This document shows, in pieces, positions 16,958 to 42,053 of a stretch of 64,000 nt of DNA. The stretch's first letter is position 1, and each line of letters begins with the position of its first letter. The stretch is from Mesorhizobium sp. GTDB lineage: Bacteria > Pseudomonadota > Alphaproteobacteria > Rhizobiales > Rhizobiaceae. The notes under the pieces are model-generated. The model had not been told where the DNA came from, made no database searches, and saw only the letters and a program-made list of their open reading frames with translations. Where the stretch lies: assembly GCA_004963905.1 (NCBI GenBank), contig SUGL01000023.1, positions 56,852-120,851 on the forward strand. Reading direction: 5' to 3'. Made by a program: the position numbers and the translations under genes.

Positions 16958-17367
16958 CGAACACCAAATGGGGCGTCATTCAGATCGCCCAGCTACTCAG
17001 CGCCTCAGATCGATAGCTTGACGCGCCATGGGGCGGCTTCGGGCAAACCGTAAGAAATACGAACGTCAGGCATCCCCGCGCGATTCTTGCCTGCCGGGCG
17101 GCGATCTCAACGACCCGCTCGCGGATTTTTTGATACTTTACTTTGTATACTCCGCCTTGCAATCATGCCGAGTGAGTCTGAGCGGAGGAAAAATCGAGCA
17201 CAAAAAAACCGGCGCGGAGGCCGGCTTTTTCCAGGGAATAGGCTACAGGAGTTGGCGCTCCTGATCTCGCCCGAAGATTTTGTGAGACCGTAGCCCGTCT
17301 TTCCCGGCATTGCAAGAAAAATGCGCTTCCGCGCCACGGCTTTGCACGGCCTGGCGAGAGGAAAGAA
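16958..17367. other. Intergenic region with a transfer-motif half-site and a terminator
   Basis: A copy of the 17-bp motif found at transfer-gene promoters lies at 17130-17146 (TTGATACTTTACTTTGT, 15 of 17 matches to the consensus). A terminator-like hairpin lies at about 17204-17230: AAAACCGGC pairs with GCCGG(C)TTTTT around a short loop, with A and T tracts on both sides, so it could work in both directions. A GGCGGCTTCGGGCAAACC leader motif appears at 17032 without a DUF736 gene after it. Confidence 0.5.
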
Positions 17368-18117
17368 ATGGATCTCTATTCAACGTTGAGCCTATGGCTC
17401 ACGAACATTCGGTCATTGGCCGAGCTGCACGATTTTTGCCGGCGGATATGGAAGCTCTACGGCGAGGAGTTGCTGGGCGAGGCCGATGCGGAGCGGCTTT
17501 GCGAGAAGGCTGAGCGACAACGCGCCAACCTCAAGAAGGCCCCTGCGGATGGTCGCGCACTACCCCGCTCCTCTTATCCGCAACGCCCTCACAGTGAGCG
17601 AGGCCGGCGCGAAGCTGCCTGCGGCTTGCGAGATCCCGTGCGATGGAGACGCAAGCGGCGTCTCGCTCGCATGCAGGCTATCCGGCCCGAATTCGCCGGC
17701 GAGTTCACCGAAGGGGAGAGCGCGGCGCTCTACATCGTCATGTGCGACTGCCGGCAGCACGGCAAATGCGACCGATCCGTAAAAGAAATTGGCGATCGGG
17801 CCGGCGTCGGGGCGAGCACGGTTCGCAATGCGCTGCGCAAAGCCGGCAGGCTCGGCTTGCTGCGCGTCACCGAGCGCAGGCAATGGCGAGCCAGGAACCT
17901 CACCAATCACATTGTTGTCGTGCATCGGCGTCAGATCGCCTGGATTGCGAAATTTCGGCCCAATCTCGGTCTTAAATTTTATCCGACTGCCTTCAAAAAA
18001 GCGGCGTCCACAGGAAGCTCCCGCAATAAATATAGCAAAAGACCGTTTAGCAGCCGATCCGACTGGCCCCCGGACGGGTCGAAGCCATTCCCCAGTCACG
18101 CATCGCCGACCGGCTGA
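17368..18117 (+). CDS. Winged helix-turn-helix protein
   Basis: The 249-residue protein starts at ATG 17368 after GAGAGGAAAG. Residues about 100-170 form a likely winged HTH: GESAALYIVMCDCRQHGKCD, RSVKEIGDRAGVGASTVRNA and LRKAGRLGLLRVTERRQWRA. The next part (NLTNHIVVVHRRQIAWIAKF) recalls the helix-turn-helix proteins found near replication or transfer genes of rhizobial plasmids. The N-terminal 50 residues are helical and the C-terminus is Ser/Pro-rich. It may control replication or transfer, but the function is unknown. Confidence 0.7.
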   Translation: MDLYSTLSLWLTNIRSLAELHDFCRRIWKLYGEELLGEADAERLCEKAERQRANLKKAPADGRALPRSSYPQRPHSERGRREAACGLRDPVRWRRKRRLARMQAIRPEFAGEFTEGESAALYIVMCDCRQHGKCDRSVKEIGDRAGVGASTVRNALRKAGRLGLLRVTERRQWRARNLTNHIVVVHRRQIAWIAKFRPNLGLKFYPTAFKKAASTGSSRNKYSKRPFSSRSDWPPDGSKPFPSHASPTG

Positions 18118-18209
18118 CGCGTTAGCCGCCAAAACCACGTAGCCGCGGAACCCCTAAAGGCTGCACGAGGGCTGTTCTTGAAGCAGCCTTGGCGATCGGT
18201 CGCGCCAAA

Positions 18210-18734
18210 TCAGGCCGGTTGGTGCTGGCTGTCGGGTTCCTGAAACAGGAAGGTTGCCGGATCGCGGCCGAGCGCCTCGCCGACGGCGGCGATCGTGTCG
18301 ACACTGATATTGCCGCTCGCGCGCTCGAGCTTGGTGAAAGTGATCTCAGACACACCCAGCAGCTCCGCCATTTGATAGCGGACCAGGTTGCGGCGCTTAC
18401 GCTCGCTGTCGATGATGGCGGCGAGGCGCGCGCGGATCGATTTTTCGGTGAGCTTGTGCGCCCATGGTTCCACCGCCGCGCCGCCGACCAGAAGTGTCGC
18501 GATCGACACCTCGAGCGCCTGGGCCATCTGTTCGACCGTGCGCAGGGTCACGTTGTTTCGTTTTCTCATGGTGCGGATGTAGGTGCGGTATGCCAGCCCT
18601 TGACCAGGCGACGTCTTGAACAGTTCCGCCATGTGTTGATGGCGAAGCTTTCGCTTACGGCGCTCCGCTTCGAGGAACCACGCGATATTGTCCCGAAGCG
18701 GGTTGTTCACCTCGCCCGCTTCGTTTGGCTGCAT
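18210..18734 (-). CDS. Double XRE-type helix-turn-helix regulator
   Basis: From ATG 18734 the 174-residue protein contains two HTH_XRE-like domains. The first (about residues 10-85) reads LRDNIAWFLEAERRKRKLRH then TLRTVEQMAQALEVSIATLL. The second (about residues 98-160) reads IRARLAAIIDSERKRRNLVR, YQMAELLGVSEITFTKLERA and NISVDTIAAVGEALGRDPAT. It is divergent from the exported protein at 18839, and one copy of the 17-bp transfer motif lies between them at 18793-18809. It is therefore the best local candidate for the protein that binds this motif and regulates transfer. The frame stays open to 18911, but that part looks like leader. Confidence 0.82.
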   Translation of the reverse strand: MQPNEAGEVNNPLRDNIAWFLEAERRKRKLRHQHMAELFKTSPGQGLAYRTYIRTMRKRNNVTLRTVEQMAQALEVSIATLLVGGAAVEPWAHKLTEKSIRARLAAIIDSERKRRNLVRYQMAELLGVSEITFTKLERASGNISVDTIAAVGEALGRDPATFLFQEPDSQHQPA

Positions 18735-18792
18735 GAATCTATGTATTCGCACGAACCCGCCTGTTCGGTCGGCCCTTTTCCCTGAGCAAAAT

Positions 18793-18809
18793 CCGTAGTA
18801 AAGTGTCAA
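18793..18809 (-). promoter_or_regulatory. Transfer-motif half-site
   Basis: CCGTAGTAAAGTGTCAA on the plus strand is the reverse complement of a 15/17 match to TTGACACTTTACTTTGG. It lies between the divergent XRE gene and the exported protein, 29 nt before the GTG at 18839. Confidence 0.6.
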
Positions 18810-18838
18810 AAACGTCAGAGAGAAAAAGGGACGCGACC

Positions 18839-19414
18839 GTGCTGAAAACTCTCGTTGTGGGCGCTGCCGCTGTCGCGAGCGCGACGTCTCTTCCGTCCAA
18901 ATCATTCGCATCCGAGTGGGGGTGTCAGGTCATCCTTTGTCTGTCTGGTGACTGGCAGGGCACGCCCTCTTGTCATCCACCCATTGACCGGCTGATCGAC
19001 GCCATGGGATTGCCGGGCTTTTCGTGGCCGACTTGTCCGCAGGCCAATTCGTCCGGCGCCGGCTACGATCCGTACGAGGCCTGCCCGCAGGGGTGGATGC
19101 CTTACGCGCCGGCTAGCGACCGGCCGGGACAAGGCCAGGCCAGCATGTGCCGAATCGCGGCTGGCAATCTCGGTCAGCCTGCCAACTTTGGAGCGCGGCA
19201 TGGTCAGGCCGACGGAAGTCCGACGGGAACCATCCAGCTCGGCGACCGCACCGTGCCGGTCCAGCTTACTCATGTCTCCAGCGGAGCACATAACGATCGA
19301 ACGACCACCTATTACGACATTCAACGCCCGCGCCGCGCGAAGCCTTACTACATCGATTACGACGACGCGAACGGGCTGCGGCAGCGCACCTGGTTCAACC
19401 TTAGCAGACCGTGA
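18839..19414 (+). CDS. Exported protein of the transfer region
   Basis: A GTG at 18839 follows AAAAAGGGA and begins a signal peptide (VLKTLVVGAAAVASATSLPS, with cleavage likely after KSFA). The mature protein of about 165 residues is cysteine-rich near its start (WGCQVILC, TPSCHP, PTCPQ), which suggests disulfides in the periplasm, and ends in a Tyr/Asp-rich part (TTTYYDIQRPRRAKPYYIDY). No family is recognised. Its place beside the transfer motif suggests co-regulation with the secretion system. The frame also opens at GTG 18803, but that lacks a ribosome site. Confidence 0.7.
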   Translation: MLKTLVVGAAAVASATSLPSKSFASEWGCQVILCLSGDWQGTPSCHPPIDRLIDAMGLPGFSWPTCPQANSSGAGYDPYEACPQGWMPYAPASDRPGQGQASMCRIAAGNLGQPANFGARHGQADGSPTGTIQLGDRTVPVQLTHVSSGAHNDRTTTYYDIQRPRRAKPYYIDYDDANGLRQRTWFNLSRP

Positions 19415-19469
19415 TCCCGAGTCACCCCGGGCGGCTAAATTAGTGGTAGGAAATGAGGGAGTTACCCCG

Positions 19470-19784
19470 ATGAAAAGCGTCAACAGGTTCACCATTCATG
19501 GCAATGTCGGGTCGGTAGCGCCCTTCGACAAAAGCACGAAGGTCAACATTGCCACCAATCGCAATTGGAAGGACGAGCAAGGCCATCCCAAGGAAGCCAC
19601 TGATTGGGTCCAGGTGACGGTCCTGGAGGAGAAGCAAGCCGCCTGGGTGGCGGAGAACGCCAAGCCCGGCGATGTCGTCTTCGTCGAAGGCCGCATCAGC
19701 AACAACTCTTTCAAACGCAACGGCGAGACCGTCTATACGACGGACCTTATCGCGTCGACGTTCAACGTCTTTCCGAAGCCGTAA
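19470..19784 (+). CDS. ssb: Single-stranded DNA-binding protein (OB fold)
   Basis: The 104-residue protein starts at ATG 19470 after GAGGGAG. It is a short SSB: MKSVNRFTIHGNVGSVAPFD, VNIATNRNWKDEQGHPKEAT, DWVQVTVLEEKQAAWVAENA and PGDVVFVEGRISNNSFKRNG. The W at DWVQV and the KPGD turn match the SSB OB fold. The usual acidic C-terminal tail that recruits partners is absent (it ends FNVFPKP), so it is probably a dedicated plasmid SSB coating transferred single strands. It lies 2 bp before the next gene. Confidence 0.9.
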   Translation: MKSVNRFTIHGNVGSVAPFDKSTKVNIATNRNWKDEQGHPKEATDWVQVTVLEEKQAAWVAENAKPGDVVFVEGRISNNSFKRNGETVYTTDLIASTFNVFPKP

Positions 19785-19786
19785 TC

Positions 19787-20158
19787 ATGTTCAATGCGGG
19801 GGCCCTTATCATGGCGGCGGCATCCGGAACATTGGTCGGCATAGGCGGCACGCTCGCATTCTATCCGGCTCAAGGCCAGCTCTCCGCGGCGATTGCGTCC
19901 GAGCCGGCACTGTGTGCGAAATTGGCCGCGGCCGGCCTTGAGATTCCATCGCCGGCCGAGGCTTTGGACGCTTTCCGGCGAGCAAAGAACACTGATCAAG
20001 CGACGTTGCGCATCGGAGAGTGCTCGAAGAACGCCGTGGGACCTGGCGTGCAGTGCACCGTGAAGTACAAGCTTCGCACCGCCTGGAAAGACGAAGGTGA
20101 TGGCGTGGTCGCGTTCTCCAGGGGACCTGATGGCTGGCAAGCGGTACAGCTGCAATAA
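19787..20158 (+). CDS. Membrane-anchored or exported small protein
   Basis: The 123-residue protein has an N-terminal hydrophobic segment (MFNAGALIMAAASGTLVGIG) and a periplasmic part with three Cys (in EPALCAKLAAAG, RIGECSKN and VQCTVKYK). The pattern of a helix followed by CTVKYKLRTAWKDEGDGVVA and FSRGPDGWQAVQL looks like a small alpha/beta domain. Start and stop lie just after ssb, so the two are probably co-transcribed. I recognise no family. Confidence 0.65.
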   Translation: MFNAGALIMAAASGTLVGIGGTLAFYPAQGQLSAAIASEPALCAKLAAAGLEIPSPAEALDAFRRAKNTDQATLRIGECSKNAVGPGVQCTVKYKLRTAWKDEGDGVVAFSRGPDGWQAVQLQ

Positions 20159-20447
20159 TTGTCTGCTAGCGAACATCTGGTTTTGTTCAGTTCCGGCGTC
20201 GATCAGCAAACCCTCGAAACCCTTCCTGCAGTGATCATCTCGCGAGCGGCACCGAGCCTATCTGACCCGCCATCAGGTCCGTCGAAGCATCTTCTTTTGT
20301 GTCGCCGCAATTCCCATGCCCAAAGAGCCGGAGCCGGAGCGCGCCTCCAATAGCGCCGTAGGGACGGCGGAGGCCGGAGAGAACGGGCCGCTGGCGGTTC
20401 CGGCGCTACAGAAGCCGTGCCCCTGGCGCGGGCCCGGTTCGCGGCGC

Positions 20448-20897
20448 TCACTTGTGTGGGGTGCAATAGACGCCTTGGGATTCCAAAAGGACGGCGCCAC
20501 CCTTCAATTCAGTGAGGGCACCCACCCAGGCGTCGGAATAGGTGCGACTGGCGTCCACCGCCGTCAGCCAGATGACGCGGTTGTCGGCAAGCTCCACCTT
20601 GACCTCGCTTTGGAGAGGGCTTGCCTGCACCGTTTGCTGATAATGCCGCTTGATGCGCACATCGCCGCTCGCAAACTCGATATTGTTGTTGTCGTAGTTG
20701 AGCAGGAATGAAGCATCCCCTTTTGCGACCTTGCAGGAGCCGTCGCGTTCACACACGATTTTTGCTGCCGTGGCGCAATCCCATCGCAGTCCCGCAGGCC
20801 ACATCGGATTGCTGCTCGTCCCATTGGACTGATCACCTGGAGCGGCGGCGCCGAGGCTCGCCGCCGCCGCTACGGCCACCAATACTGCCCTAATCAT
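20448..20897 (-). CDS. Exported protein of the transfer region
   Basis: The 149-residue protein has a signal peptide ([20 protein letters not shown]). The mature part contains paired cysteines ([17 protein letters not shown] and VYCTPHK) and beta-rich segments ([20 protein letters not shown]). It overlaps the stop of the gene at 20890-21090 by 8 bp, so the two form an operon running from the motif at 21094. No family is recognised; periplasmic location is inferred. The region 20159-20447 on its 3' side has no gene. Confidence 0.7.
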
Positions 20898-21090
20898 CCG
20901 TTCCGCACACCTTACTGTTCGGCACCATCAAGATCAGCTCGCGCTGGCGCATCATGCCGACGGAGGCAAGCGCGCTGTAATGCGCCAGCGTGGCGGCTGC
21001 CGCATCAAGCGCGGCCTCGAATCCGTCGCGCGTCGAGATCTCGGCCAAAGCTGCCCTGAATATCACTGTCCTGTCCGGTTGATCGCTCAT
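20890..21090 (-). CDS. Small protein, first gene of a two-gene operon
   Basis: The 66-residue frame starts at ATG 21090, only 3 bp from a copy of the 17-bp transfer motif. It is Ala-rich and helical ([40 protein letters not shown]), and its downstream neighbour overlaps it. The RxxEL and LILMVP segment may be a short strand. The function is unknown. Confidence 0.6.
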
Positions 21091-21093
21091 AAA

Positions 21094-21110
21094 TTGACAC
21101 TACACTTTGG
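21094..21110 (+). promoter_or_regulatory. Transfer-motif half-site between divergent operons
   Basis: TTGACACTACACTTTGG matches the consensus TTGACACTTTACTTTGG at 15 of 17 positions. It separates the minus-strand pair 20448-21090 from the plus-strand virC1-like gene. On the plus strand, TTGACA and TTATGA 17 bp apart could also be a promoter for virC1. Confidence 0.6.
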
Positions 21111-21177
21111 GTTCAGTTATGACAATTGCCGGGCAGGCGGTTGGCATAAAAGCGGTTCATCGAAGGTCCCCCGAGCT

Positions 21178-21858
21178 ATGATCATATCTGCCGCTATCGC
21201 CAAAGGTGGCACTGGCAAATCGACCCTGCTGCGCGCGCTGGCATCCGTCGCCCTTAAGCGCGGCTACGCGGTGACACTCATCGACGGCGACGTTCGCCAG
21301 AACATGAGCCGGTGGGCTCAGATGCTCAAGGAGGCCGGCAATCGCCCCGAGACACTCCAGCTGGTCAGCGCCACGACGCCGCGCGAGATCCTGAAGGCGG
21401 CAGAACTGCAAAATGGCGAGCGCAGCGTGGTGCTGATCGACACCGAAGGCACCACGAACGACAATCTCATGGCCGGGCTATTTGCTTCTGATATCGTCGT
21501 GGTGCCCATCTTCTTCGCGCTCGATGACGTGACCGCCGCAATCCAGATCACCGACCACTACATCCCGCTCGCGGTCGAAACACGCGGCCGGCCGCTGCCA
21601 GCCGTGTTTGTCCTGACAAAACAGACCATCATCGATGCGAAGGCGAGAGCCTTGAGCGAACTGCGCGCAATCATTCAGGCGAACGGCACGCCGATCGCCC
21701 AACATGCGCTGCAAAACCGTGTCGCCTATCGGGACCTGCAAAGCGGCCAGACACTCTACAGCCCAGATCAGCCCGACGCGAAGGCGATTGCCGAAAGTGA
21801 AGGGGTCTTCGACGATGTCCTGAAGACCTTCACCGAAGCAATGAGGCAGGCCGCATGA
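21178..21858 (+). CDS. ParA-family ATPase (VirC1-like)
   Basis: The 226-residue protein starts MIISAAIAKGGTGKSTLLRA with a deviant Walker A (KGGTGKST), a Walker A' segment TLIDGD and a Walker B-like VVLIDTEGTTND. In length and position, beside an oriT-like region, a relaxase and a small ribbon-helix-helix partner, it resembles Agrobacterium VirC1, which binds near the transfer origin and brings the relaxosome to the cell pole and the VirD4 coupling protein. Simple plasmid partition is the alternative, but no replication genes are seen nearby. Its TGA overlaps the next ATG. Confidence 0.85.
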   Translation: MIISAAIAKGGTGKSTLLRALASVALKRGYAVTLIDGDVRQNMSRWAQMLKEAGNRPETLQLVSATTPREILKAAELQNGERSVVLIDTEGTTNDNLMAGLFASDIVVVPIFFALDDVTAAIQITDHYIPLAVETRGRPLPAVFVLTKQTIIDAKARALSELRAIIQANGTPIAQHALQNRVAYRDLQSGQTLYSPDQPDAKAIAESEGVFDDVLKTFTEAMRQAA

Positions 21859-22265
21859 CCGACAAGAGCCTCCCGGAGTCACAGGACGACAAGAAGGCTC
21901 GCATGATGAGAGCGATCTCCACTGAGCCGCCGGCGCTTCCGAGCATGTTCATCGCTCCCAAGTCCGATCCCGCCCATCAGCCGCTTGCCGCCGCATCCGC
22001 GGCGGCATCGGAGGCCGAAGCTGCGCCCGCGTCACCTCGGCCGGACTTCCGCAAAATGCTGCGACAGGGCCAGAAGAAGGATCCGGTTGCCGGCAGGAAG
22101 ATTCGCGACGAGGAAATGGTGCGCTGCGGCTATTACCTTACGGCCGGGGAGCAGCGCCAATTCAAGCTGCTCGCGATCAGCAACGGCCACAGCATGACCG
22201 AGTTGCTGCGCCAGGCGGTGCAGGACTACATCAGGATCCATAAGCACAAGCTGCCCAACGATTAG
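21855..22265 (+). CDS. Ribbon-helix-helix partner protein (VirC2-like)
   Basis: The ATG overlaps the virC1-like stop (ATGA). The 136-residue protein has a disordered Ala/Pro-rich N-terminus and a C-terminal DNA-binding segment (MVRCGYYLTAGEQRQFKLLA then HSMTELLRQAVQDYIRIHKH) that fits a ribbon-helix-helix, as in VirC2, which binds the overdrive sequence next to a T-DNA border. By analogy it may bind the DNA right after it (22266-22766). Alternatively it is a ParB- or CopG-type partner of the ATPase. Confidence 0.7.
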   Translation: MTDKSLPESQDDKKARMMRAISTEPPALPSMFIAPKSDPAHQPLAAASAAASEAEAAPASPRPDFRKMLRQGQKKDPVAGRKIRDEEMVRCGYYLTAGEQRQFKLLAISNGHSMTELLRQAVQDYIRIHKHKLPND

Positions 22266-22766
22266 GTCAGCCCGCTCCGCGGCATCCGCCGCGTTGAGGG
22301 TTGCAGAGAACGCTGGAGGCCCATCGGTAAGGCCGCGCCATCGATGCTCGGCCCGGCGCAAGTCGGCCGTGCCTGTCGGCCTCGGTCGCGTGGCTCAGCT
22401 TGTCCGCCTTACCTAACCCACGGGGGTCGCGGCGATCCCGATCGCACGAGCTCATGTTCCCTGCTCGTTGCGAGCTGTCTCCATGTTAGCATGATGATTC
22501 CGCAGCAAGGCCACCTTTTGAGACAGAAACATGTCGCAAAGTTGGCTTGTCGATAAGTTGACGATGCAAGATGTTTCCGAGGCGGCATGTTTCCTTGCTA
22601 ACATGTGCAGATGATTTGGAAATGAAAGCTGGGGTTAGTTAGAGTACCACCGCAAAGATATTTTGGTGATGTTGTTTTTGTCTTTGGCAGGATAGCCTTT
22701 TTTGTGTTACACACGAAAAGAGACGGCGCGGCCCAAGGGCCTTAGCGCCCGCAAGCGGGCTTGAAG
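22266..22766. other. oriT: Probable origin of transfer (oriT) region
   Basis: This 500-bp gene-free stretch lies between the virC2-like gene and the mobC-relaxase pair and is clearly richer in A+T than its surroundings from about 22470. It contains an exact 10-bp inverted repeat (CATGTTAGCA 22482-22491; TGCTAACATG 22596-22605), nested AAACATG and CATGTTT, and a TATCCTG core on the minus strand at 22686-22697. Position, composition and repeats fit an oriT. Confidence 0.65.
22686..22697 (-). other. Candidate nick site (nic) of oriT
   Basis: The minus strand reads GGCTATCCTGCC. The core TATCCTG followed by C is the consensus nick region used by MOBP relaxases such as RP4 TraI, and resembles the T-DNA border core cut by VirD2. 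The relaxase encoded 480 bp away looks like that class. The cut would fall between G and C of CTG/CC. Confidence 0.5.
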
Positions 22767-23174
22767 ATGAGACCCAACAGTGGCCAAACAGAAACCCAGG
22801 ACGCATCCGGGCGCTATGGCGAAATCCTGCATGTGCGCTTCTCAAACGTCGAACTGGAGCGGCTGCGCGCCATGGCTGACGGGGAGTCGGTGACGGTCAG
22901 CGAAGTCGTTCGCCGCCTTGTTCGGAGCGAGGCAGGCTTTCTTCCGACAGCAACGGGGGAGCTGCGACCCGCCATTGAGGAGGCCACGGACCAGCTTCGC
23001 CGCGTCGGTGTGAATTTCAACCAGGCGGTCCGCGCGATGAACGAAGGCCGGGTACCGTATGACGAAGACCTCGAGCGCGCCTTGATCGCCGTTGGCGAAC
23101 TCGTGCGTCGGTTCCGCGAAGAGTTAAAGGCGATGATTGCGAGGCCGCGCAAGCGAAGCGAGGTCAAGTCATGA
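22767..23174 (+). CDS. mobC: MobC-like relaxosome accessory protein
   Basis: The 135-residue protein begins at ATG 22767 (a TTG is 6 bp upstream). It has a ribbon-helix-helix start (EILHVRFSNVELERLRAMAD, SVTVSEVVRRLVRSEAGFLP) and the MobC pattern ATDQLRRVGVNFNQAVRAMN followed by a helical, basic end (RRFREELKAMIARPRKRSEV). MobC proteins bind oriT and open the strands at nic for the relaxase. The stop overlaps the relaxase ATG (ATGA), so the two are coupled. Confidence 0.85.
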   Translation: MRPNSGQTETQDASGRYGEILHVRFSNVELERLRAMADGESVTVSEVVRRLVRSEAGFLPTATGELRPAIEEATDQLRRVGVNFNQAVRAMNEGRVPYDEDLERALIAVGELVRRFREELKAMIARPRKRSEVKS

Positions 23175-25426
23175 GCGGTCGTCTCGCCGGCTATGCTGCC
23201 GAGATCGAACGCTATTTGCGGATGCCGGGCGCTGCGGATCTCGACGACACTGATGATAAGCTTCTGCAATCGGCCGGCCGGGAGATGGCCGATCGTCAAG
23301 CGATGAACATCCGTGCGAGCGGCATCGCCGCAGGCCGCTGGTCTCCGCCCCACGCCGGCGGGCAATGGTCGAGCGCGAAGCACTCAGGAGCGAGCCTTCG
23401 CGTCGCAACGGCCCCGGTTTCGTCCGCAGGCCGAGGAGGGGCCGCCACCACGATACCGCTGTCTGCTCGGCCGCAAGGCGCCAGTGGGAGCATGCGTTCA
23501 TCCAGCGACGCAAAAGGGGCGATAGCCATTTTCGACCTCGCACTCGGCGCTTTCGTCAAGGAAGAGGAAGAAGAATGGCGGCGCCGTGGCGGGGGTGGCG
23601 GAAGGTCTGGCGCGCTCCCGTCCACTCGACACTTCGCGCGGTCGACGCGAGAGGCGAGGGCGGTTGCGGCGCGGGCGGCCTACGCCGCCGGCGCGCAGCC
23701 TGCCGTGTTCAAGGTCCTTTCGAGCGCGGCCAATGGTAAGCAGGCCGGCGCCCTGCTCGCCTATATCGGCACACGCGCCAACGAACAGGGCGAGAAGCGC
23801 GACATCGAGGTCTTCACCGATAGCGGACAGGGGCTTGTCAATGCCCAGGACCGTCGCGTCTTTCTCCACCAATTCACCCAGACATTCGAGCCGCAGCTCG
23901 AGAATACGAATTTCATCGAAGTACGTTTCGATCTCGCCGGCGACGTCAGGGACGAAGCGCTTTCCGCTGCCCTGAATTCGGCCTTCGGATCGAAGCCGTT
24001 CGTCTATGCTCGCACGGGCAACAGCGTTGACGTTTATGGTCACGCGGAGGAACGCGCCGGACCACTTGCCAAGATCTTAGCCGCCGGGCGGGCAAATTCA
24101 CGCAGCAAGGCGCTCGACAACATCGAAGCCGGCTTGGGCGAAGCCATGGGGAAGGCCGGCATTCGCGCGGCAGCGGAAGTGACGGCTGCCGTCGGCAATG
24201 AGCGTAAGGCGCAATACTTCCTGCAAAAGTTTATCCGGGCGCACGAGCAGGTTCGCTACGCGGATGGGCAGGCGGTTTGCAGCAAACAGCCAACGAAGGC
24301 GGCCGCGGCGATTTTTGAGGACTGGCGGCCACAACTTTCCGGCCGGGAGCGGCGCAATGCCTATCACCTGCTTTTCTCGGCCCGGGCTGGTACGGACGCG
24401 CAAGCGGTCTTGGCGGCCGCGCGGGCCGTGCTCGAGGAGCGGGCGCCCGGGCACAAATTCGTGCTCGCACACCATGCCGAGACGAAGCACGTCCATATCC
24501 ACGCCATGGTGCAGGCGTGGTCGGCCGACGGCGAGCGGCTGACATTCTACAAGGCGGATCTCCATGCCTGGCGCGAAGCGTACGCGGAGAAGGCGCGCGA
24601 ACACGGCATCGCGATGGTCGCAACCCGCCGGTACGATCACGCAATGAGCCGACCGTACACGAAGGAACATGCGGGCGCCTACAAGCGCGCAAAGGACGAC
24701 CCGCGCTACCAGGTCAGTGAAAAGACGGTCGCGCGTGTGGAGGACAAACGACAGCGTCGAATGGATAGCGGATTGCTCGTCGCCAATGGCGGAGCGATCG
24801 CCGGCGTGTGGCAGCAGACGGCCGCCGTTATGCGGTCGGCTGGCGTGACCGGCCAAGCTCTGACTGCGGCCGGGGCGATCGGCCACACTGTCCTCCAGGT
24901 TCATGCGCGTAGGGGAGGCGAGAAGCCGGCCGCTGGCGTCTCCAAAGATGGCGGGGGACCGGGGCGGACCCCATCGTTCTTGTCCCATCCCGGCATGAAA
25001 GAATTGACCAGGCTGATAGGAGCTACCGAAATGGCGCAGACACCTTTGGAAATGCGGCAGAAGATGGCGCGTGTGAATCAAGCATTGGATGAGATGCGGG
25101 ACACGCTTCCCAATGCTGAGCAACCCCGTTTCGAGCAATACCGCGATGGCGTGAACGACAAGATGCACGATCGTCTCGCCCGGCTCCAGTTCGAGCAGCA
25201 AAAGGGTGCAGGCGGAGGCGGCGAGGCCGCGCCCCAAAGAGAGGCGCGCGACCGCGATTTGCCGGCCCGAGACGACACGCGTCAACTCGAGGCTTCGGGG
25301 CCGCAGGCTGAGAAGGCGCGACAACGCGTTCAGCAGCAAAAAGACTCAGCCAAGCAAAAGGGCCGGCAGGCCGACGAACAGGACCGCAAGGCGCAGCGCA
25401 GCCAGGACGACGAATACGAGCGCTGA
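23171..25426 (+). CDS. Conjugative relaxase (MOBP / VirD2-like)
   Basis: The 751-residue protein has an atypical Ser/Gly/Ala-rich N-terminal 170 residues, then a relaxase domain at about 180-490. Candidate catalytic Tyr is Y198 in GALLAYIGTR, and the metal triad is H440, H442 and H444 in KHVHIHAMVQ, preceded by GHKFVLAHHAET. The C-terminal 230 residues are helical and Gln/Arg-rich (KARQRVQQQKDSAKQKGRQA), a likely translocation signal for VirD4. It nicks oriT and pilots the strand into the recipient. The Tyr lies unusually far from the N-terminus compared with VirD2 (Tyr29), so the long leading domain is notable. Confidence 0.88.
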   Translation: MSGRLAGYAAEIERYLRMPGAADLDDTDDKLLQSAGREMADRQAMNIRASGIAAGRWSPPHAGGQWSSAKHSGASLRVATAPVSSAGRGGAATTIPLSARPQGASGSMRSSSDAKGAIAIFDLALGAFVKEEEEEWRRRGGGGGRSGALPSTRHFARSTREARAVAARAAYAAGAQPAVFKVLSSAANGKQAGALLAYIGTRANEQGEKRDIEVFTDSGQGLVNAQDRRVFLHQFTQTFEPQLENTNFIEVRFDLAGDVRDEALSAALNSAFGSKPFVYARTGNSVDVYGHAEERAGPLAKILAAGRANSRSKALDNIEAGLGEAMGKAGIRAAAEVTAAVGNERKAQYFLQKFIRAHEQVRYADGQAVCSKQPTKAAAAIFEDWRPQLSGRERRNAYHLLFSARAGTDAQAVLAAARAVLEERAPGHKFVLAHHAETKHVHIHAMVQAWSADGERLTFYKADLHAWREAYAEKAREHGIAMVATRRYDHAMSRPYTKEHAGAYKRAKDDPRYQVSEKTVARVEDKRQRRMDSGLLVANGGAIAGVWQQTAAVMRSAGVTGQALTAAGAIGHTVLQVHARRGGEKPAAGVSKDGGGPGRTPSFLSHPGMKELTRLIGATEMAQTPLEMRQKMARVNQALDEMRDTLPNAEQPRFEQYRDGVNDKMHDRLARLQFEQQKGAGGGGEAAPQREARDRDLPARDDTRQLEASGPQAEKARQRVQQQKDSAKQKGRQADEQDRKAQRSQDDEYER

Positions 25427-25678
25427 AGCGTGGGCCGCAACCGCAGCCCGTTGCGAGATAGAGACATGCCTGAATTCAGCAATGGACTTGGGCGCTCAAG
25501 GTCGTCTTCGACCGGCTACGCAGCAGCGAGTAGCAGCACTGGAGGTGTGGCACCCCGAAGGGACCGAAATTCACGATCCTTTATGACGCCAACGGCCATC
25601 AGTTCCAAGGTTTGACCAATGAGAAATAGGCCTCGTCCGCAAAGCTGCTGAAACGAAACCTTTCCGCTCGTGGGAGCC

Positions 25679-31076: not shown

Positions 31077-31088
31077 AATGCGACCTCG

Positions 31089-33580: not shown

Positions 33581-34384
33581 CTATCGTCCGCTCGCGCTCG
33601 GGGAGGAGAAGGGGCCGGCCCCGCGCACCAGCTTCCTCGGTCCGTAGACGACGGAGACAGGGTCCGCCTTCGACGGCCGGGTTCGATTGTAGAGGCAGAG
33701 CGTTTTGCCGTCGGCCCTCAGCGTGAATTGCCGGCCGATCTTGTCGACGATCGTGTATTTTCCGTGGGTGCGCTGATTGACCAGCGATTCCTGACCTTTT
33801 TCGTCGACGACGAAGATGGCCGGAATGTCGCCGGTGAACTCCAGGAACATCTTGGTACCGTCGTCGAATGCGACGCGCGGCTTCAGGCTGTCATCGCCGA
33901 CATAGACGTAATTGTAGTTGAGAACGGCATGGTTGAGGTTCTTGAGATCGGGATCGGCAGCGCTTTTCTGGGCCTCGGAAAGCAAGCGCGCGTCTTGATA
34001 CTCATCCGCGTATCTGAACCGGACCTGGAAGGAGGCACGGTCGCGATCGCTGTCGGTGGATTTGAGCAAGAGCGAATAGACGCGCCGGTCGGTAATGACG
34101 TTGACATTCGTCCAGGCATCCCGTTCGAGCGGCTTGATGAACAGAAAGCGCGAGCCGCGTTTGGGCACAATCGACCAGCCCTTCGTGTCGCCGGCTGAAA
34201 CTGTTTCGATCACCTCGGACGGGCTGAGCTCGATCATCGTGGAGACGCCGAGCGCGGCATTGACCGTCGTCACATTGTCGTTGTCGAAAGGCACGTAGCG
34301 GATACGATAGTCGCGCGCGGCAGCGTAGCTGGTCGAGCCGAGCAAAATCAGCAGGGAGAGAGCGGCCCCAAGGTGGGTCTTCAT
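33581..34384 (-). CDS. virB9: VirB9 outer-membrane core protein
   Basis: The 267-residue protein starts at ATG 34384 with a signal peptide ([20 protein letters not shown], cleavage after AAA). It has the VirB9/CagX pattern: [54 protein letters not shown] and a C-terminal domain with [20 protein letters not shown] and [20 protein letters not shown]. It forms the outer-membrane ring with VirB10. The start overlaps the virB8 stop (ATGA), so the longer open frame is not used. The last residues are short and polar. Confidence 0.95.
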
Positions 34385-35091
34385 TGCGCGCTCCCGGCCG
34401 TTGGTGCGGACTCCTGATCGCGACGGTATTCGATCACCTGGAAGCCAAGCGGATTGTCGAAGCGCCATTCGTTCTTGATCGGCGTCGTCGTGTAACGGAA
34501 CTTGACCACGGCCACCCAATTGTCGGTCGTGGAAGAATTCTCGCGACGCGTCGTGGTCGAAAACCGCACCGACGCCGTCGTGCTGTTGAGCAGTGAAACC
34601 GACTTGACGTCGACGGAAATGGTGACGTTGCGCCCGTACACCTTGTCGAGGGATTGCGCGTTGGACGGCGTGTAAGCCCAAGTCAAATCCCTGGACGCCG
34701 TTCCCGTCGAATAAAGCTGCGCAAGATCGTAGTTCTGCTTGATCTCGCGCGCGTCATAGGTTTCGCGGGCGCGAATATAGCGAACGAGATTGGCGGCCGT
34801 GACCGCCTCATTCTGCGACAGATCGCCGGGTTTCAGCGCGCGCGCAACTTCGAGATATCCGGTCGTCTTGTCGACCTCAATCACATAGGGCTCGAATTGC
34901 TTGAGCGGAAGGATGAGCACGAGCGTCAGCAACGAAAGGCCTGCAACGACACTGGCAGCGCCGCTGACAAGCCAGGCCAGCGTGCGCGAACGTCTCAGAG
35001 ACCGGTGCGTGTCGTCCTCCCACGTCGCGCCGGCCCGATAGTAGCGCTCGTCAACGAGGTTGCCGGTTGCGGCGGGGATGCTTGCCTGCAT
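34381..35091 (-). CDS. virB8: VirB8 inner-membrane assembly protein
   Basis: The 236-residue protein has a cytoplasmic N-terminus, one membrane helix ([20 protein letters not shown]) and the NTF2-like periplasmic VirB8 domain ([60 protein letters not shown]). It nucleates channel assembly. The ATG at 35091 is chosen because it follows the transfer motif by 2 bp and yields a normal start; a GTG at 35100 lies inside the motif. It begins the second part of the operon. Confidence 0.95.
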
Positions 35092-35093
35092 TT

Positions 35094-35110
35094 TTGTCAC
35101 TTTACTTTAG
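35094..35110 (+). promoter_or_regulatory. Transfer-motif half-site before virB8
   Basis: TTGTCACTTTACTTTAG matches TTGACACTTTACTTTGG at 15 of 17 positions. It lies in the 72-bp gap between virB6 and virB8, only 2 bp before the virB8 ATG, so it may mark an internal regulated start for virB8-B11-D4. Confidence 0.6.
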
Positions 35111-35172
35111 CCTCATGTCCAAGCTCCCACTGCGGCGCTCAAGCAGCACTTCTCAGGCGGTTGCCTGCAGGT

Positions 35173-36389: not shown

Positions 36390-36392
36390 CGA

Positions 36393-37127: not shown

Positions 37128-37138
37128 TCTCAGACCTC

Positions 37139-38299: not shown

Positions 38300-40685
38300 G
38301 CTCGCTCTCCCATCCGCAAAGGTAAGGCAGCCACGCTTCCGGCTCTTGTCCGTAAATCTCGCGCAGCCGTTCGCATTCCTTGATGCTGGCTTCGTTGGTC
38401 GACAGAACCTTGATGAGATCGGGCATGCCCGACAGATCGAGCTTGGCCACGATGGAATCGCTGTCGTGCTTGACCAGGAACGTGCGTGTTTCCTTGGCGG
38501 TGCGGCGCACGAACTCGAACTCTTTCGCCGTCAGCGAGAAGCGCGCCATGTAGGAATCCTTGCTCGCCTTCGGATTGGGGAAAAAGATGTTGGTTTTCGT
38601 CTGCTCGATCAGCGAGGACGAGACCGACGAGTTCACCACATCCTCGGCCGTCTGCGTGCCAAAGCCGACGACGCCGTTGCGCCGGCGGATCGTTTTCAGC
38701 GTCTCGTTGATGAAGGCGGCAAACACCTCGTCATCGAGCAGCTTCCAGCCTTCATCGAGGAACATCAGAAGCGGCGTGCCGTCGATGATCTCTTCCAGCC
38801 GATGGAAGATGTAAAGCAGAGCGGCCGAGCGCAATTTTTTGTCGGCCAGGATCTTGGTCATGTCGAACCCGACCACCGGCTTCGAAAAATCGACGAGATC
38901 GACGGGGTTATTGAAAAGCCAGCCCTTGTCGCCAGGGTCGAGCCACGGTTCAATGCGCGCCGCGAGATCGTTCATTCCGGGCGCCAGCGAGCCGCGCAGC
39001 ACCTCCGGCAGCAGCTCGAACGTGCGTTGTTGGCGCGGAACCTTGTAAACCTTGTCGACGGCCGTGTTGATCACGCGCATTTCAGCCACGTCGAGCGAAC
39101 CGTCGTCAGGGGTGAGCAAGTAGCGCAGCAGCCCTTCGAGAAACGTCCGGTTTTCTGCGGTGTCTTCCAGCTGGAGCGGCGCAAAGCCGGTGGCCTGCAT
39201 CGGCTCCATCACCTCATAGCGGCCGCCGAGCGCGCGAATAAAGAGCTCGGCGCCGCGCATATAATCGAAGTAGACGCATCGCGGTCGCGGCGAAATCCGC
39301 ATTGCCTGGGCCATCAGGAATGACAGCACGACCGTCTTGCCCGAACCGGTCGGTCCGAAAACCGTGAAATGACCGACGTCATGAACGTGAAAGTTGAAAT
39401 AATAGGCTGTCTGGCTTGTCGTCTCGAGGAGCGCGATCGGCCGCTTCCAATGCAGTCCCTCACGCTGGCCTGAGGGAAAATTGTGGCCCGAGAACAGCCC
39501 GGCAAAGTTCAGCGACGAGATCAGGGCGCGGCGCGCAATGTAGCTGAAATTGCCGGGCAGCTGTGCCCAAAACGCAAGTTCGGTGTTGAGCGTTTCCCGC
39601 ACCGGCACGATCGACATGCGCGACAGTTCGGCGGTGGTGTCGGACAAGGAGCGGTTGAGCCCTTGAACGTCGGCAGCCAGCGCCATCACAGTCATGTGGT
39701 GCTGGCCGAAAACAACCTCGCCACCGGCAAGCTTGTCGGCGCCAGCGTGCACGGAATCCTCGACCGTGGTTCCGGCCTCATCCGAACCGCTGACCTGGTT
39801 CGAGATGGTGTTGATGCGGCGCATGGCCGTCACGCGATCCTCAATCGCAAACGACTGCGTGAGGATGAATTCGTGCGGCAGCCGCAACAGGCCATCCAGC
39901 GACCCGGGTGCCGTGAAGGGCGGGTATTCCTTGATCGACACCATGGCGCCGATCTTGCTTGTCTGCGCTCCCCTGATCTCCAGAGCGGATTTGCCGAAGA
40001 AGATTTGCCGGGTCGCACAGGCGCTCGCCAAGCTCATGCGCGGCAGCGGCATTTCGACGTCCGCGCCGCCGGCAAGGATCTTGGCGATGAATTCGGCAGG
40101 TTCGGAAAACACGCCGTCGCGTCGCGTCACCACGCCCAGGAGCCGCGCGCCATAGGCCGAAAAGTCCTTCACCACGCCATTGAGGACATCGTGCAGTTCG
40201 GCCATGGCCTCTTCACGCGTCTCTTCGACGGCCGTGCTGATGCGGAACGCGTTGAGCGCCTTGTCGACCCAGCCGACACGCCCGACCATCGGCCGGCGGA
40301 TGAGCGTCAAAAAGGCCTCGTTGACGAACAGGTTCTTCGAGCCCAACTCGTCCATGTAGCGGGCATCGAGCTCCGCCACGAAAGGGTTTTCGAAATCTCC
40401 TTCGATCTCTGGTGTCACGTGACGCCGGATGATGGTCGCATAGGCGGCAAAACGGGACGTGGAGAGGTTGCGGAATGTCGTGTTGCGATTGAACAGCCGG
40501 TTGTTGAGCTCTGCCTGATCCATGGTCTGGAAAGGCAGGCCGCTAAGCTGAATGACCCCGACGAGAAAGCCGCTTTTGGTGACGACCAGGTTGTCGTCGA
40601 CATGGCGCAAATAGGGGACATGGGCCTCGACAGGCTTTTCCCGTTTGCGCGCTTTCGTGAATTTCAGGTCGGCGTTCACGCTCAC
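38283..40685 (-). CDS. virB4: VirB4 ATPase
   Basis: The 800-residue ATPase starts at GTG 40685, overlapping the virB3 stop (GTGA), which gives the usual VirB4 length; the longer open frame would run into virB3. It has the CagE/TrbE N-terminal domain, Walker A GPTGSGKT (444-451), Walker B LLMFLDEGWKLLDD and a GFGTQTAEDVVNS motif, as in all VirB4 proteins. It powers pilus assembly and substrate transfer at the inner membrane. Confidence 0.96.
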   Translation of the reverse strand: MSVNADLKFTKARKREKPVEAHVPYLRHVDDNLVVTKSGFLVGVIQLSGLPFQTMDQAELNNRLFNRNTTFRNLSTSRFAAYATIIRRHVTPEIEGDFENPFVAELDARYMDELGSKNLFVNEAFLTLIRRPMVGRVGWVDKALNAFRISTAVEETREEAMAELHDVLNGVVKDFSAYGARLLGVVTRRDGVFSEPAEFIAKILAGGADVEMPLPRMSLASACATRQIFFGKSALEIRGAQTSKIGAMVSIKEYPPFTAPGSLDGLLRLPHEFILTQSFAIEDRVTAMRRINTISNQVSGSDEAGTTVEDSVHAGADKLAGGEVVFGQHHMTVMALAADVQGLNRSLSDTTAELSRMSIVPVRETLNTELAFWAQLPGNFSYIARRALISSLNFAGLFSGHNFPSGQREGLHWKRPIALLETTSQTAYYFNFHVHDVGHFTVFGPTGSGKTVVLSFLMAQAMRISPRPRCVYFDYMRGAELFIRALGGRYEVMEPMQATGFAPLQLEDTAENRTFLEGLLRYLLTPDDGSLDVAEMRVINTAVDKVYKVPRQQRTFELLPEVLRGSLAPGMNDLAARIEPWLDPGDKGWLFNNPVDLVDFSKPVVGFDMTKILADKKLRSAALLYIFHRLEEIIDGTPLLMFLDEGWKLLDDEVFAAFINETLKTIRRRNGVVGFGTQTAEDVVNSSVSSSLIEQTKTNIFFPNPKASKDSYMARFSLTAKEFEFVRRTAKETRTFLVKHDSDSIVAKLDLSGMPDLIKVLSTNEASIKECERLREIYGQEPEAWLPYLCGWESEHEEAA

Positions 40686-40975
40686 GGCGAATAGCTCCTC
40701 GCGCCCCAAAAGCCCGAGTTCGCGACCGCGTCCCGTTTCGACAGTCGGCGTTCGACTATGTGGAAGATGTACGGGTCGCGCTGGCACAGATAGGCGCTGA
40801 TCAGATGGGTCGCGCTGAATAGACCGAGGCCGAGCGTGAAGCTGCTGGTCGCGATGAATCCGATGACGGCAGCCATGCCGTTAAGCGCGAACACCTCGTA
40901 GCGCACACCCCATTTCATCGGCGGGCGCGTCAGAGGCAGGCTGACCGGCTCGACATAGACCTCTTCGTCCTCCAT
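40682..40975 (-). CDS. virB3: VirB3 membrane protein
   Basis: The 97-residue protein from ATG 40975 begins MEDEEVYVEPVSLPLTRPPM and has two membrane helices (about 32-75) and the conserved RDPYIFHIVERRL end typical of VirB3/TrbD. It overlaps virB4 and lies 5 bp after virB2. It stabilises VirB4 in the membrane. The longer frame reaching 41032 would overlap virB2 and is not used. Confidence 0.92.
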   Translation of the reverse strand: MEDEEVYVEPVSLPLTRPPMKWGVRYEVFALNGMAAVIGFIATSSFTLGLGLFSATHLISAYLCQRDPYIFHIVERRLSKRDAVANSGFWGARSYSP

Positions 40976-40979
40976 CGGC

Positions 40980-41294
40980 TCACGCGCCTCCAGCGGTGGA
41001 GCGGATGGAATCGACCAGAGCTGCGGCGCCAAACACCAGAGCGATGCCGATGATGATGGAAAGCGCCATCATCCACACCAGTCTGCCGGTCATGGCGAGG
41101 AAGCCGAGAAAGCAAACCGCTATGATCCCGAAAGATCGGGCAATGCTGCCCTGCAGGACACCGACGAACCATTCCAGCACGCCCTCGACCGGAGCGGCTG
41201 ACTGCGCGTATGCGCTCGCCGGCGCGAGCGCCATTCCGATCGCCGCAGCGGCCATAAACTGGACTGCGAATTTGCCCGCCTTTTTATAATCCAT
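40980..41294 (-). CDS. virB2: VirB2 major pilin
   Basis: The 104-residue prepilin has a long signal peptide (MDYKKAGKFAVQFMAAAAIG, cleavage after YAQ or later) and two hydrophobic segments (IARSFGIIAVCFLGFLAMTG, MALSIIIGIALVFGAAALVD), as in VirB2/TrbC. It forms the transfer pilus. It is followed by virB3 after 5 bp. Confidence 0.93.
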   Translation of the reverse strand: MDYKKAGKFAVQFMAAAAIGMALAPASAYAQSAAPVEGVLEWFVGVLQGSIARSFGIIAVCFLGFLAMTGRLVWMMALSIIIGIALVFGAAALVDSIRSTAGGA

Positions 41295-41308
41295 CGTCGT
41301 CTCACCTT

Positions 41309-41986
41309 TCAGTTGCCAAAATCCATGACGTGACCATCTTGCCAGGCGACGCCATCGCCCCCGCCGGTCGCGGCTGCGCGATGATCGTCAACACGGTTGG
41401 GAATGGGAGCCTTGATCAGCTTGCCGAGCTTCCAGCGATTGAGCACCTTGACCACGTATTTCGTGGTCTCGTCGTTCACGGGGATGCCGTTGGCTTTGTA
41501 GACGTTCTCTTCGCCTGCATTGTAGGCGGCCAACATCAGCAGCGGATCATGGAACTCGTCATAAAGCGCTTTCAGATAGCGGACGCCCGCACGGACATTG
41601 GCTTTGGCGTCACATCTGTCGGCCACACCGAGACGCGACGCTGTCGCCGGCATGAGCTGCATGATGCCGAGAGCGCCCGCGCGAGACGGACCTTGATTGC
41701 CGCCCATGTCGCTTTCTGCCCAGGCAACCGCCTCGGTCAGATCGGGATCGAAGCCTTCTTCTTCGGCGATCTGCCGCACCATGGCCGCGGCCCGCCCGCG
41801 ATCTGCCGGCGCACACCCGCCGCCGATCGTCGAACCGTGATCAGCATCGGGAACGCTCGTAACCGCCGGGCGGGCCCGCAGAGCAAACGCCGCCGCGATG
41901 GGTGTCGAGCTCGTGTTGTCGGCATATGCGCCGAATGGCGCCATGACGGCTGAGAGAGAAAGCGCAAGCGCGATCCGGTTTTTCAT
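41309..41986 (-). CDS. virB1: VirB1 lytic transglycosylase
   Basis: The 225-residue protein has a signal peptide (MKNRIALALSLSAVMAPFGA) and an SLT domain (EAVAWAESDMGGNQGPSRAG, ALGIMQLMPATASRLGV, LMLAAYNAGEENVYKANGIP), with the catalytic Glu in WAESD. It cuts peptidoglycan locally so the channel can be built. It is the first gene of the virB operon and starts 14 bp from the dyad at 42000-42043. Confidence 0.93.
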   Translation of the reverse strand: MKNRIALALSLSAVMAPFGAYADNTSSTPIAAAFALRARPAVTSVPDADHGSTIGGGCAPADRGRAAAMVRQIAEEEGFDPDLTEAVAWAESDMGGNQGPSRAGALGIMQLMPATASRLGVADRCDAKANVRAGVRYLKALYDEFHDPLLMLAAYNAGEENVYKANGIPVNDETTKYVVKVLNRWKLGKLIKAPIPNRVDDHRAAATGGGDGVAWQDGHVMDFGN

Positions 41987-41999
41987 TGCGCTACCGATT

Positions 42000-42043
42000 T
42001 TGACATTTTACTATGGGTACATGGTGCCAAAGTAAAGTGTCAA
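42000..42043. promoter_or_regulatory. Near-perfect dyad operator between virB1 and the divergent operon
   Basis: TTGACATTTTACTATGG (42000-42016) and CCAAAGTAAAGTGTCAA (42027-42043) are inverted copies with 15 of 17 matching positions across a 10-bp spacer. Each arm ends close to a start codon (41986 on the minus strand, 42054 on the plus strand). Half-sites of the same sequence recur at 17130, 18793, 21094 and 35094. A dimer of a dimer-binding regulator could control both directions. Confidence 0.75.
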
Positions 42044-42053
42044 TACGAGAAGC

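What the first reader, a model, noticed from the sequence alone, without database searches (positions are those of the whole stretch)
17130..42043. A shared 17-bp sequence at five sites of the conjugation module: a possible new transfer operator
TTGACACTTTACTTTGG-like sequences (15 of 17 matches or better) lie at 17130-17146, 18793-18809, 21094-21110, 35094-35110 and as an inverted pair at 42000-42016 / 42027-42043. All fall between 17 and 42 kb, in the transfer module. Four sites sit within 2-29 bp of start codons (virB8, the pair at 21090, the exported protein at 18839, virB1 and its divergent partner), always in the same orientation toward the gene. The double-XRE protein at 18210 is divergent from one site. 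I know of no described operator with this sequence.
Basis: partly seen in the sequence, partly recalled or inferred. Interest (0 to 1): 0.85.

Follow-up and report, generated by a model that had tools for sequence, protein, structure and literature searches.

The report
Operator of a double-XRE transfer regulator
A short DNA sequence repeated at six places in a plasmid's conjugation genes is very probably the landing site of a neighbouring DNA-binding protein, and comparison with related plasmids suggests that protein and site changed together.

Summary
Of 146 genomes of the genus, 28 hold the exact motif; all 28 carry the double-XRE protein (window 18213-18734), which 36 have; the control is 0 in 146. 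All 53 sites belong to this transfer locus.

Six XRE loci without this T4SS or EXP beside them keep one site; a 60%-identical subtype does not. A diverged double XRE (34-38% identical) has a changed site, AGTTAAAGTATMAACT, at the same promoters. Related systems have a one-domain XRE divergent from EXP and a palindrome, TAAACTATAGTTTA, at the same promoters; at virB1 it covers the -10 of TTGACA-N17-TTAAYT.

Best reading: operator of an autoregulating XRE repressor controlling virB1, virB8 and accessory exported-protein genes. Binding and the sign of control are inferred. 'New transfer operator' is supported; 'always the same orientation' holds for five of six sites.

The parts
17130..17146 (-). 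site 1, ACAAAGTAAAGTATCAA; 221 bp before gene 17368-18117, across a terminator-like leader, opposite orientation to that gene
   Evidence: conserved in L132 and L134 and, as a changed site before the homologous gene, in L117 and L122
17209..17224 (+). terminator-like hairpin in the leader between site 1 and gene 17368
   Evidence: 3 such found in 4.3 kb, 4.4 expected, so not significant alone; GC-rich hairpins in the same place in L135, L136, L166, L117, L122, by eye
17368..18117 (+). 249-aa protein with a weak HTH match (HTH_36, below cut-off); target of site 1 (inferred)
   Evidence: homologues 48-49% in L117 and L122, 29-31% in L086 and L015
18210..18734 (-). double-XRE regulator, 174 aa, proposed binder of the sites, autoregulated
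18793..18809 (+). site 2, CCGTAGTAAAGTGTCAA, between the XRE gene (58 bp) and EXP (29 bp)
   Evidence: 27 of 33 named XRE loci have a site of at least 16.9 bits just upstream of XRE
18839..19414 (+). EXP, 191 aa, exported-looking protein of unknown function, divergent from XRE
   Evidence: 264 plasmid records with a homologue
19470..19784 (+). single-strand DNA-binding protein after EXP
   Evidence: next to EXP also in L117 and L122 and annotated next to EXP in L086 and L169
20448..21090 (-). SMALL (66 aa, 20890-21090) and a 149-aa exported-looking protein (20448-20897), overlapping genes
   Evidence: the 149-aa gene has its own site in L151, L152, L154 and a palindrome in L169 and L171
21094..21110 (-). 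site 3, CCAAAGTGTAGTGTCAA, between SMALL (3 bp) and the divergent parA-to-relaxase run
21178..25426 (+). DNA-processing genes: ParA/VirC1-like, RHH-like, NikA/MobC-like (below cut-off), relaxase; possible further target of site 3
34384..35091 (-). virB8
   Evidence: annotated T4SS homologues in L013, L016, L017, L018; tblastn
35094..35110 (-). site 4, CTAAAGTAAAGTGACAA, 2 bp before virB8
   Evidence: conserved in L013, L016, L017, L018 and L121, L131, L133; absent in L014 at 4 mismatches
41309..41986 (-). virB1-like lytic transglycosylase, first gene of the T4SS run 28911-41986
42000..42016 (-). site 5, CCATAGTAAAATGTCAA, 13 bp before virB1
42027..42043 (+). site 6, CCAAAGTAAAGTGTCAA, 10 bp before DIV; inverted partner of site 5 with a 10-bp gap
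   Evidence: the same gap in all 26 fetched loci in which both sites were found (5, 2, 19; some are the same plasmid fetched twice)
42054..42695 (+). DIV, 213 aa, exported-looking, divergent from virB1

Best explanation
The six sites are the operator of the plasmid's own double-XRE protein (18210-18734). The protein binds a 17-bp asymmetric site, one XRE domain on each part, next to its own gene (autoregulation) and at the promoters of virB1, the divergent exported protein DIV, virB8, the SMALL operon, EXP and gene 17368. Because five of six sites lie 2-29 bp from a start codon, and because the corresponding palindrome in related one-domain systems covers the -10 box of virB1, it most likely works as a repressor that keeps the transfer genes off by blocking RNA polymerase. 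Shown: the sites, their restriction to this locus, their link with the XRE gene, and their joint change with it. Inferred: binding, repression, autoregulation, the inducing signal (unknown), and the assignment of domains to half-sites.
For: Six sites against 0.07 expected; control level elsewhere in the genome. Genus: motif in 28 of 146 genomes, XRE in 36, every motif genome has XRE, reversed control 0 of 146. By coordinates 52 of 53 genus sites lie at the virB1/DIV pair (36), about 6.9 kb from it (11; virB8, by distance only) or at XRE/EXP (5), and the last lies before an EXP copy. 27 of 33 named XRE loci have the site just upstream of XRE. Six distinct XRE loci with no match to DIV, VirB8, gene 17368 or the 149-aa protein in the stretch read keep one site beside XRE: pMLa L080, pM0123b L081 (= L125), MesoLj131b2 L083, L123, L129, L130. 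A diverged double XRE, 34-38% identical, has AGTTAAAGTATMAACT-like sites at XRE/EXP, virB1, SMALL and the 17368 homologue. One-domain XRE systems have a palindrome at the corresponding places, covering the -10 of TTGACA-N17-TTAAYT before virB1 in 6 of 6 loci, two of which are nearly identical. Model of the XRE protein: two helical HTH-like halves, pLDDT 88.2, pTM 0.83.
Against: No binding or expression data. XRE, site and T4SS travel on one element, so co-occurrence alone cannot separate cause from linkage. Two XRE loci of a 60%-identical subtype (L082 = L124, and L128 = L161) have no site. pMLa has a more distant VirB system 11 kb from its XRE gene and no site there. Four of seven EXP regions read outside group A (L170, L172, L173, L174) show neither the divergent XRE arrangement nor the palindrome, so the group C arrangement is not general among EXP plasmids. 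No sigma-70-like promoter was found at any of the six sites, so overlap with a -10 is shown only by analogy with the one-domain systems. The first XRE domain has no Pfam match above cut-off; it rests on the model and on alignment to the one-domain proteins.
Confidence: 0.82

Rival explanations
1. The sites are operators of the XRE protein, but it activates transfer genes rather than repressing them.
For: No sigma-70-like promoter is recognisable at the window sites, as at many activator-dependent promoters; nothing tested gives the sign.
Against: Sites lie 2-13 bp before four start codons, too close for an activator unless transcripts start elsewhere; in one-domain systems the operator covers the -10 of a promoter with a full TTGACA.
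Confidence: 0.12
2. The motif is a promoter element (a -10-like box, TAAAGT) read by a special sigma factor, not an operator.
For: It is asymmetric, close to start codons and points toward the gene at five of six sites.
Against: Orientation is inverted at gene 17368 and at SMALL in L117; the same promoters carry a near-perfect palindrome in one-domain systems; the motif follows the XRE gene in loci without the transfer genes beside it. No sigma factor was sought.
Confidence: 0.06
3. The operator belongs to another regulator of the same element, and the XRE protein is only linked to it.
For: Linkage on one mobile element; another HTH-like protein, 17368-18117, is present.
Against: XRE loci in which gene 17368, DIV and VirB8 have no match in the stretch read keep the site (L080, L081, L083, L123, L129, L130); the site is changed where XRE is changed. 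Only 15-36 kb around each was read, so a second regulator elsewhere is not excluded.
Confidence: 0.07
4. Chance similarity or a repeat spread by copying.
For: None beyond the short length.
Against: 0.07 expected against 6; flanks differ between sites; found in 28 of 146 genomes with 0 in the control.
Confidence: 0.005

Closest known systems
TrbR of pRleVF39b (Rhizobium leguminosarum VF39SM), XRE regulator of a type IVa transfer system
   Same: XRE-type regulator encoded in a rhizobial transfer region; mutation raises transfer (passages in PMC7449395; PMC8628070; PMC9601222).
   Different: [quoted passage not shown] the XRE gene here lies outside them. Sequence and operator of TrbR were not available; homology untested.
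RctA of R. etli p42d and S. meliloti pSymA
   Same: Plasmid-borne regulator that binds the virB (or trb) promoter region and represses it (PMC13055273 passage).
   Different: RctA has a winged-helix domain and is divergent from virB; here Cro/C1-type HTH, and the gene divergent from virB1 is an exported-looking protein.
QseC of ICEMlSymR7A
   Same: XRE regulator of transfer in Mesorhizobium (PMC7449395 passage).
   Different: Belongs to an integrative element; no sequence or operator comparison was made.
Conjugation switch of Bacillus plasmid pLS20
   Same: Plasmid regulator acting on overlapping divergent conjugation promoters (PMC4207663, title and start of abstract in the listing).
   Different: Gram-positive plasmid; only the listing was seen.
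C.BclI and other small XRE control proteins
   Same: Best sequence match of the second XRE domain in the PDB (2b5a, E 2.2e-7, residues 96-163).
   Different: One-domain protein; no structure match with E below 0.001, and TM-score by query length at most 0.36 in the 50 rows shown.

Membership tests
XRE-family regulators | Cro/C1-type HTH domain | tested here: met
   HTH_3 32.1 bits (cut-off 23), HTH_31 32.5 (27) at residues 111-160
XRE-family regulators | second, N-terminal HTH of the same type | tested here: inconclusive
   no Pfam match above cut-off before residue 95; model shows helices 12-27, 32-37, 49-56, 64-74, 78-83 with mostly high confidence; one-domain XRE aligns to it at 27-30%
TrbR-like transfer repressors | gene between Dtr and Mpf regions | tested here: not met
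   XRE at 18210-18734; Dtr genes 21178-25426; T4SS 28911-41986
TrbR-like transfer repressors | loss of the gene raises transfer | not testable with these tools
   needs a mutant
TrbR-like transfer repressors | sequence homology to TrbR | not tested
   TrbR sequence not at hand; the 2013 paper (PMC3553830) is not held, the 2020 paper was not looked up
RctA repressors | winged-helix DNA-binding domain | tested here: not met
   Pfam gives only Cro/C1-type HTH families above cut-off
RctA repressors | gene divergent from the virB operon | tested here: not met
   DIV, without any Pfam family, is divergent from virB1
TraR / tra box quorum regulation | LuxR-type regulator with an inverted-repeat tra box | not tested
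   tra box recalled only; no search made
sigma-70 promoter | TTGACA-N16-18-TATAAT-like pair at the sites | tested here: not met
   none at 41900-42120 or 35000-35220; two at 17000-21300, neither overlapping a site

The most novel reading that the evidence does not exclude
A whole transfer regulon changed its operator together with its regulator: a one-domain XRE that reads a symmetric palindrome (TAAACTATAGTTTA) and a tandem two-domain XRE that reads an asymmetric site occupy the same divergent position before EXP and act on the same set of promoters (regulator/EXP, virB1/DIV, virB8, the 149-aa exported protein, gene 17368). Duplication inside the regulator would have removed the need for a symmetric operator, so that one monomer reads one site and the inverted pair at virB1 (fixed 10-bp gap) serves two promoters.
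Probability: 0.45. Interest if true: 0.68.

Novelty: new variant of a known kind. Interest (0 to 1): 0.58.

Why it matters
It gives a concrete regulator, operator and target list for conjugative plasmids of Mesorhizobium, for which the papers seen here describe TraR-, RctA- and TrbR-type control in other rhizobia. The three groups (two double-XRE types, one single-XRE type) that seem to regulate the same promoters through different operators are a ready-made case for studying how a regulator and all of its binding sites change together, and whether a fused pair of XRE domains frees an operator from symmetry.

Tried and rejected
Chance: rejected. Sigma-70 promoter at the sites: none found; reading TTGACA inside the motif as a -35 gave no -10 at a usable distance (by eye). 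Sigma-factor promoter element: set aside because of inverted orientation at two places and palindromes in group C. RctA and TrbR as the same thing: not filed, see membership test. Paper search for the motif letters found two unrelated immunology papers; for the palindrome, the 20 papers listed of 33 all concern malaria. Foldseek found no hit with E below 0.001 and no good match to both halves. A profile search in 397 genomes of the order found only the own genome, and the family-level search of 394 genomes one further (G165), so the double XRE looks narrow: the 33 loci are Mesorhizobium except one Aminobacter and one MAG named Hyphomicrobiales.

Rows that do not fit: loci without a site of 16.9 bits are L161 (60%-identical subtype), L163 and L164 (XRE fragment at the start of the locus, upstream DNA absent), L165 (XRE match starts at residue 55), L166 and L167 (group B, changed site, 13.0 bits). 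An earlier count said 26 of 33; the recount gives 27. EXP regions L170, L172, L173 and L174 show no palindrome and no XRE divergent from EXP. The dyad test used consensus strings that I wrote from the outputs, so it illustrates rather than tests symmetry: the best centre with seven pairs has 7 of 7 for C, 4 of 7 for B, 3 of 7 for A. The expectation of 0.0 for the palindrome is from single-base shuffles of two loci only.

They added the test for gene 17368, the 149-aa gene, DIV and VirB8 in the XRE loci without this T4SS, the promoter scan at site 4, and the finding that the second palindrome in L169 and L171 lies before the 149-aa gene homologue.
Full report
WHAT IS THERE. The six sites exist as stated. 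Read toward the neighbouring genes the sequence is CCAWAGTAAAGTGTCAA. Against dinucleotide shuffles 0.07 matches are expected and six are found. In the own genome the exact pattern WAGTRWARTGWCAA occurs five times, all in the window; with up to one mismatch it occurs twelve times, six of them in the window, and the reversed control pattern gives seven. The window is part of contig C155 of a genome whose relatives are mostly Mesorhizobium. A matrix from the six sites separates them (26-31 bits) from everything else in the window (13.3 or less).

SURROUNDINGS. The sites lie before virB1 and, as an inverted partner with a 10-bp gap, before a divergent exported-looking gene (DIV, 42054-42695); before virB8 (start 35091); before a 66-aa gene (SMALL) that overlaps a 149-aa exported-looking gene (20448-20897) and is divergent from the ParA-to-relaxase run; between a double-XRE gene (18210-18734) and an exported-looking gene (EXP, 18839-19414); and at 17130, 221 bp before gene 17368-18117, with a terminator-like hairpin between. 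'Exported-looking' is my reading of the N-termini; no signal-peptide program was run. Gaps to start codons are 2-29 bp for five sites.

CONSERVATION. Of the seven plasmids about 76% identical in the T4SS (H2-H8) four were read (L014, L016, L017, L018): all four keep the virB1/DIV pair with the same 10-bp gap and the XRE/EXP site, and three of the four the virB8 site. L013 was read around the T4SS only and showed three sites.

GENUS-WIDE TEST. Of 146 genomes of the genus, 28 hold the exact pattern CNNWAGTAAARTGTCAA (53 sites); the reversed control is zero in all 146. The XRE protein is found in 36, DIV in 29. All 28 motif genomes have XRE and DIV, and no genome lacking XRE has the motif (Fisher p about 4e-23; not corrected for kinship or for linkage on one element). 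By coordinates 29 sites face DIV, 7 face virB1, 11 lie about 6.9 kb away (virB8, by distance only) and 5 lie at XRE/EXP; the one left over lies before an EXP copy (L175). The one DIV genome without an exact motif, G507, has changed sites at virB8, virB1 and XRE/EXP, and none within 3 mismatches facing DIV (L121).

THE SITE GOES WITH THE XRE GENE. Among 33 named XRE loci found in a scan of species genomes, 27 have a site of at least 16.9 bits just upstream of XRE; the other six are listed in Tried and rejected. Six distinct XRE loci with no match to DIV, VirB8, gene 17368 or the 149-aa protein in the 15-36 kb read keep one site beside XRE: pMLa (L080), pM0123b (L081, same plasmid as L125), MesoLj131b2 (L083), L123, L129 and L130. 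Three qualifications: pMLa has a more distant VirB system in the stretch, with a virB1 match of 47% and an EXP-like gene (31%) divergent from it, and no site there; L123 seems to keep the first codons of EXP after its site (by eye); L130 also has one 3-mismatch hit elsewhere. Against: the 60%-identical subtype L082 (= L124) and L128 (= L161) has no site.

GROUP B. In G480 (L117) and G165 (L122) the XRE protein is 35-38% identical over the matched part (32-35% over the whole alignment). The XRE-EXP-SSB order is the same, and the sites are changed but related: AAGTTAAAGTATAAACT and CAGTTAAAGTATCAACT at XRE/EXP, GTAAGTTAAAGTAATAACC before virB1 (L117), TGTTAAAGTATCAACT before SMALL (L117, opposite orientation), and AAATTAAAGTAAAAAC or AAGTTAAAGTAAAAAC before the leader and hairpin of the 17368 homologue. 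The core TAAAGTRTCAA is largely shared with group A. These sites were found by ungapped comparison, weak matrix scores and by eye, not by a blind search; the virB8 promoter of group B was not read.

GROUP C. T4SS loci with DIV 41-49% identical were read in Shinella (L015, L084), Ensifer pT173b (L085), Nitratireductor (L086) and as second copies in G508 and G403 (L119, L120, nearly identical to each other). No group A site within 3 mismatches was found in any of the six. A palindrome TAAACTATAGTTTA with at most 2 mismatches lies at virB1/DIV in 5 of 6 loci (L085 has a weaker form) and just before virB8 in 5 of 6; further copies lie before another small gene of the T4SS in four loci (L015, L084, L119, L120). 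Of seven EXP regions read outside groups A and B, three (L086, L169 from the same Shinella plasmid as L015, and L171 from Ensifer pT173c) have EXP divergent from an XRE protein of 85-88 aa with TAAACTATAATTTA between them; the other four (L170, L172, L173, L174) have neither. Pfam was run on one of the three XRE proteins and shows a single HTH_3 domain (L169). In L169 and L171 a second palindrome lies before the homologue of the 149-aa gene; in L086 none within 2 mismatches. A weaker form, GTAAAATATAATTAC, lies before the leader hairpin of the 17368-type gene in L015, L084 and L086 (by eye). The promoter TTGACA-N17-TTAAYT toward virB1, with its -10 inside the palindrome, is present in 6 of 6 loci. 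The one-domain protein aligns to both halves of the window XRE (27-30% and 25-31%; two-sequence comparison without composition correction, so the E-values mean little).

THE PROTEIN. AlphaFold2 with 27 sequences gives a confident two-part helical model (pLDDT 88.2, pTM 0.83). Pfam sees Cro/C1-type HTH above cut-off only in the second half. The N-terminal half holds a constant stretch, YRTY..T, in its third helix. Structure and PDB sequence searches match one XRE domain at a time.

HOW IT LIKELY WORKS. The XRE protein is made from a promoter next to its own operator and holds down its own gene and the transfer genes. Overlap with the promoter is shown by sequence for group C virB1 and inferred for the window. 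What relieves it is unknown. The pair at virB1/DIV would switch both operons at once. Site 3 could also reach the ParA-to-relaxase run, but L018 has no site near its ParA and relaxase genes, so control of DNA processing is not general.

KNOWN SYSTEMS. XRE regulators of rhizobial transfer are known (TrbR, QseC; passages in PMC7449395, PMC8628070, PMC9601222) and RctA represses virB (passage in PMC13055273; PMC13274422 mentions a proposed RctA-binding site without giving letters in the passages seen). None of the passages seen gives this operator. The primary RctA (2005) and TrbR (2013) papers are not held; the 2020 TrbR paper was not looked up.

Noticed in passing
window 25682-28606 (-): TrlF-family AAA-like ATPase (NCBIfam NF045780, 672.9 bits, cut-off 350), with weaker matches to anti-phage ATPase models, sits between the relaxase and the VirD4-like gene.
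   Followed up: no
window 43867-46474; L016 27447-30580; L018 27634-30262: The slot near DIV holds either a 537-aa protein with a dienelactone-hydrolase-like gene (window, L013, L018; also in L170) or a response regulator, FkbM methyltransferase and histidine kinase (L014, L016, L017, L174).
   Followed up: no
window 17147-17367: Leader with a terminator-like hairpin between site 1 and gene 17368, seen also in groups B and C; possible attenuator.
   Followed up: partly
L015, L084, L086, L119, L120, L169, L171: Palindrome TAAACTATAGTTTA as the likely operator of related transfer systems with a one-domain XRE; a second regulon in its own right.
   Followed up: partly
L015 19653, L084 3137, L119 17213, L120 17497: A further palindrome copy inside the T4SS run that has no counterpart among the window sites.
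   Followed up: no
L175 (G418 C3): An EXP copy keeps its operator; beside it, where XRE would be, stand reading frames that look like IS66-type transposase genes (by eye, recalled).
   Followed up: no
L014 25613-26159: The XRE gene of M. huakuii 583 p_2 matches in two overlapping pieces and looks frame-shifted.
   Followed up: no
window 35071-35098 (+): Terminator-like pattern on the + strand overlapping site 4 and the virB8 start (3 nested hits, 0.2 expected).
   Followed up: no
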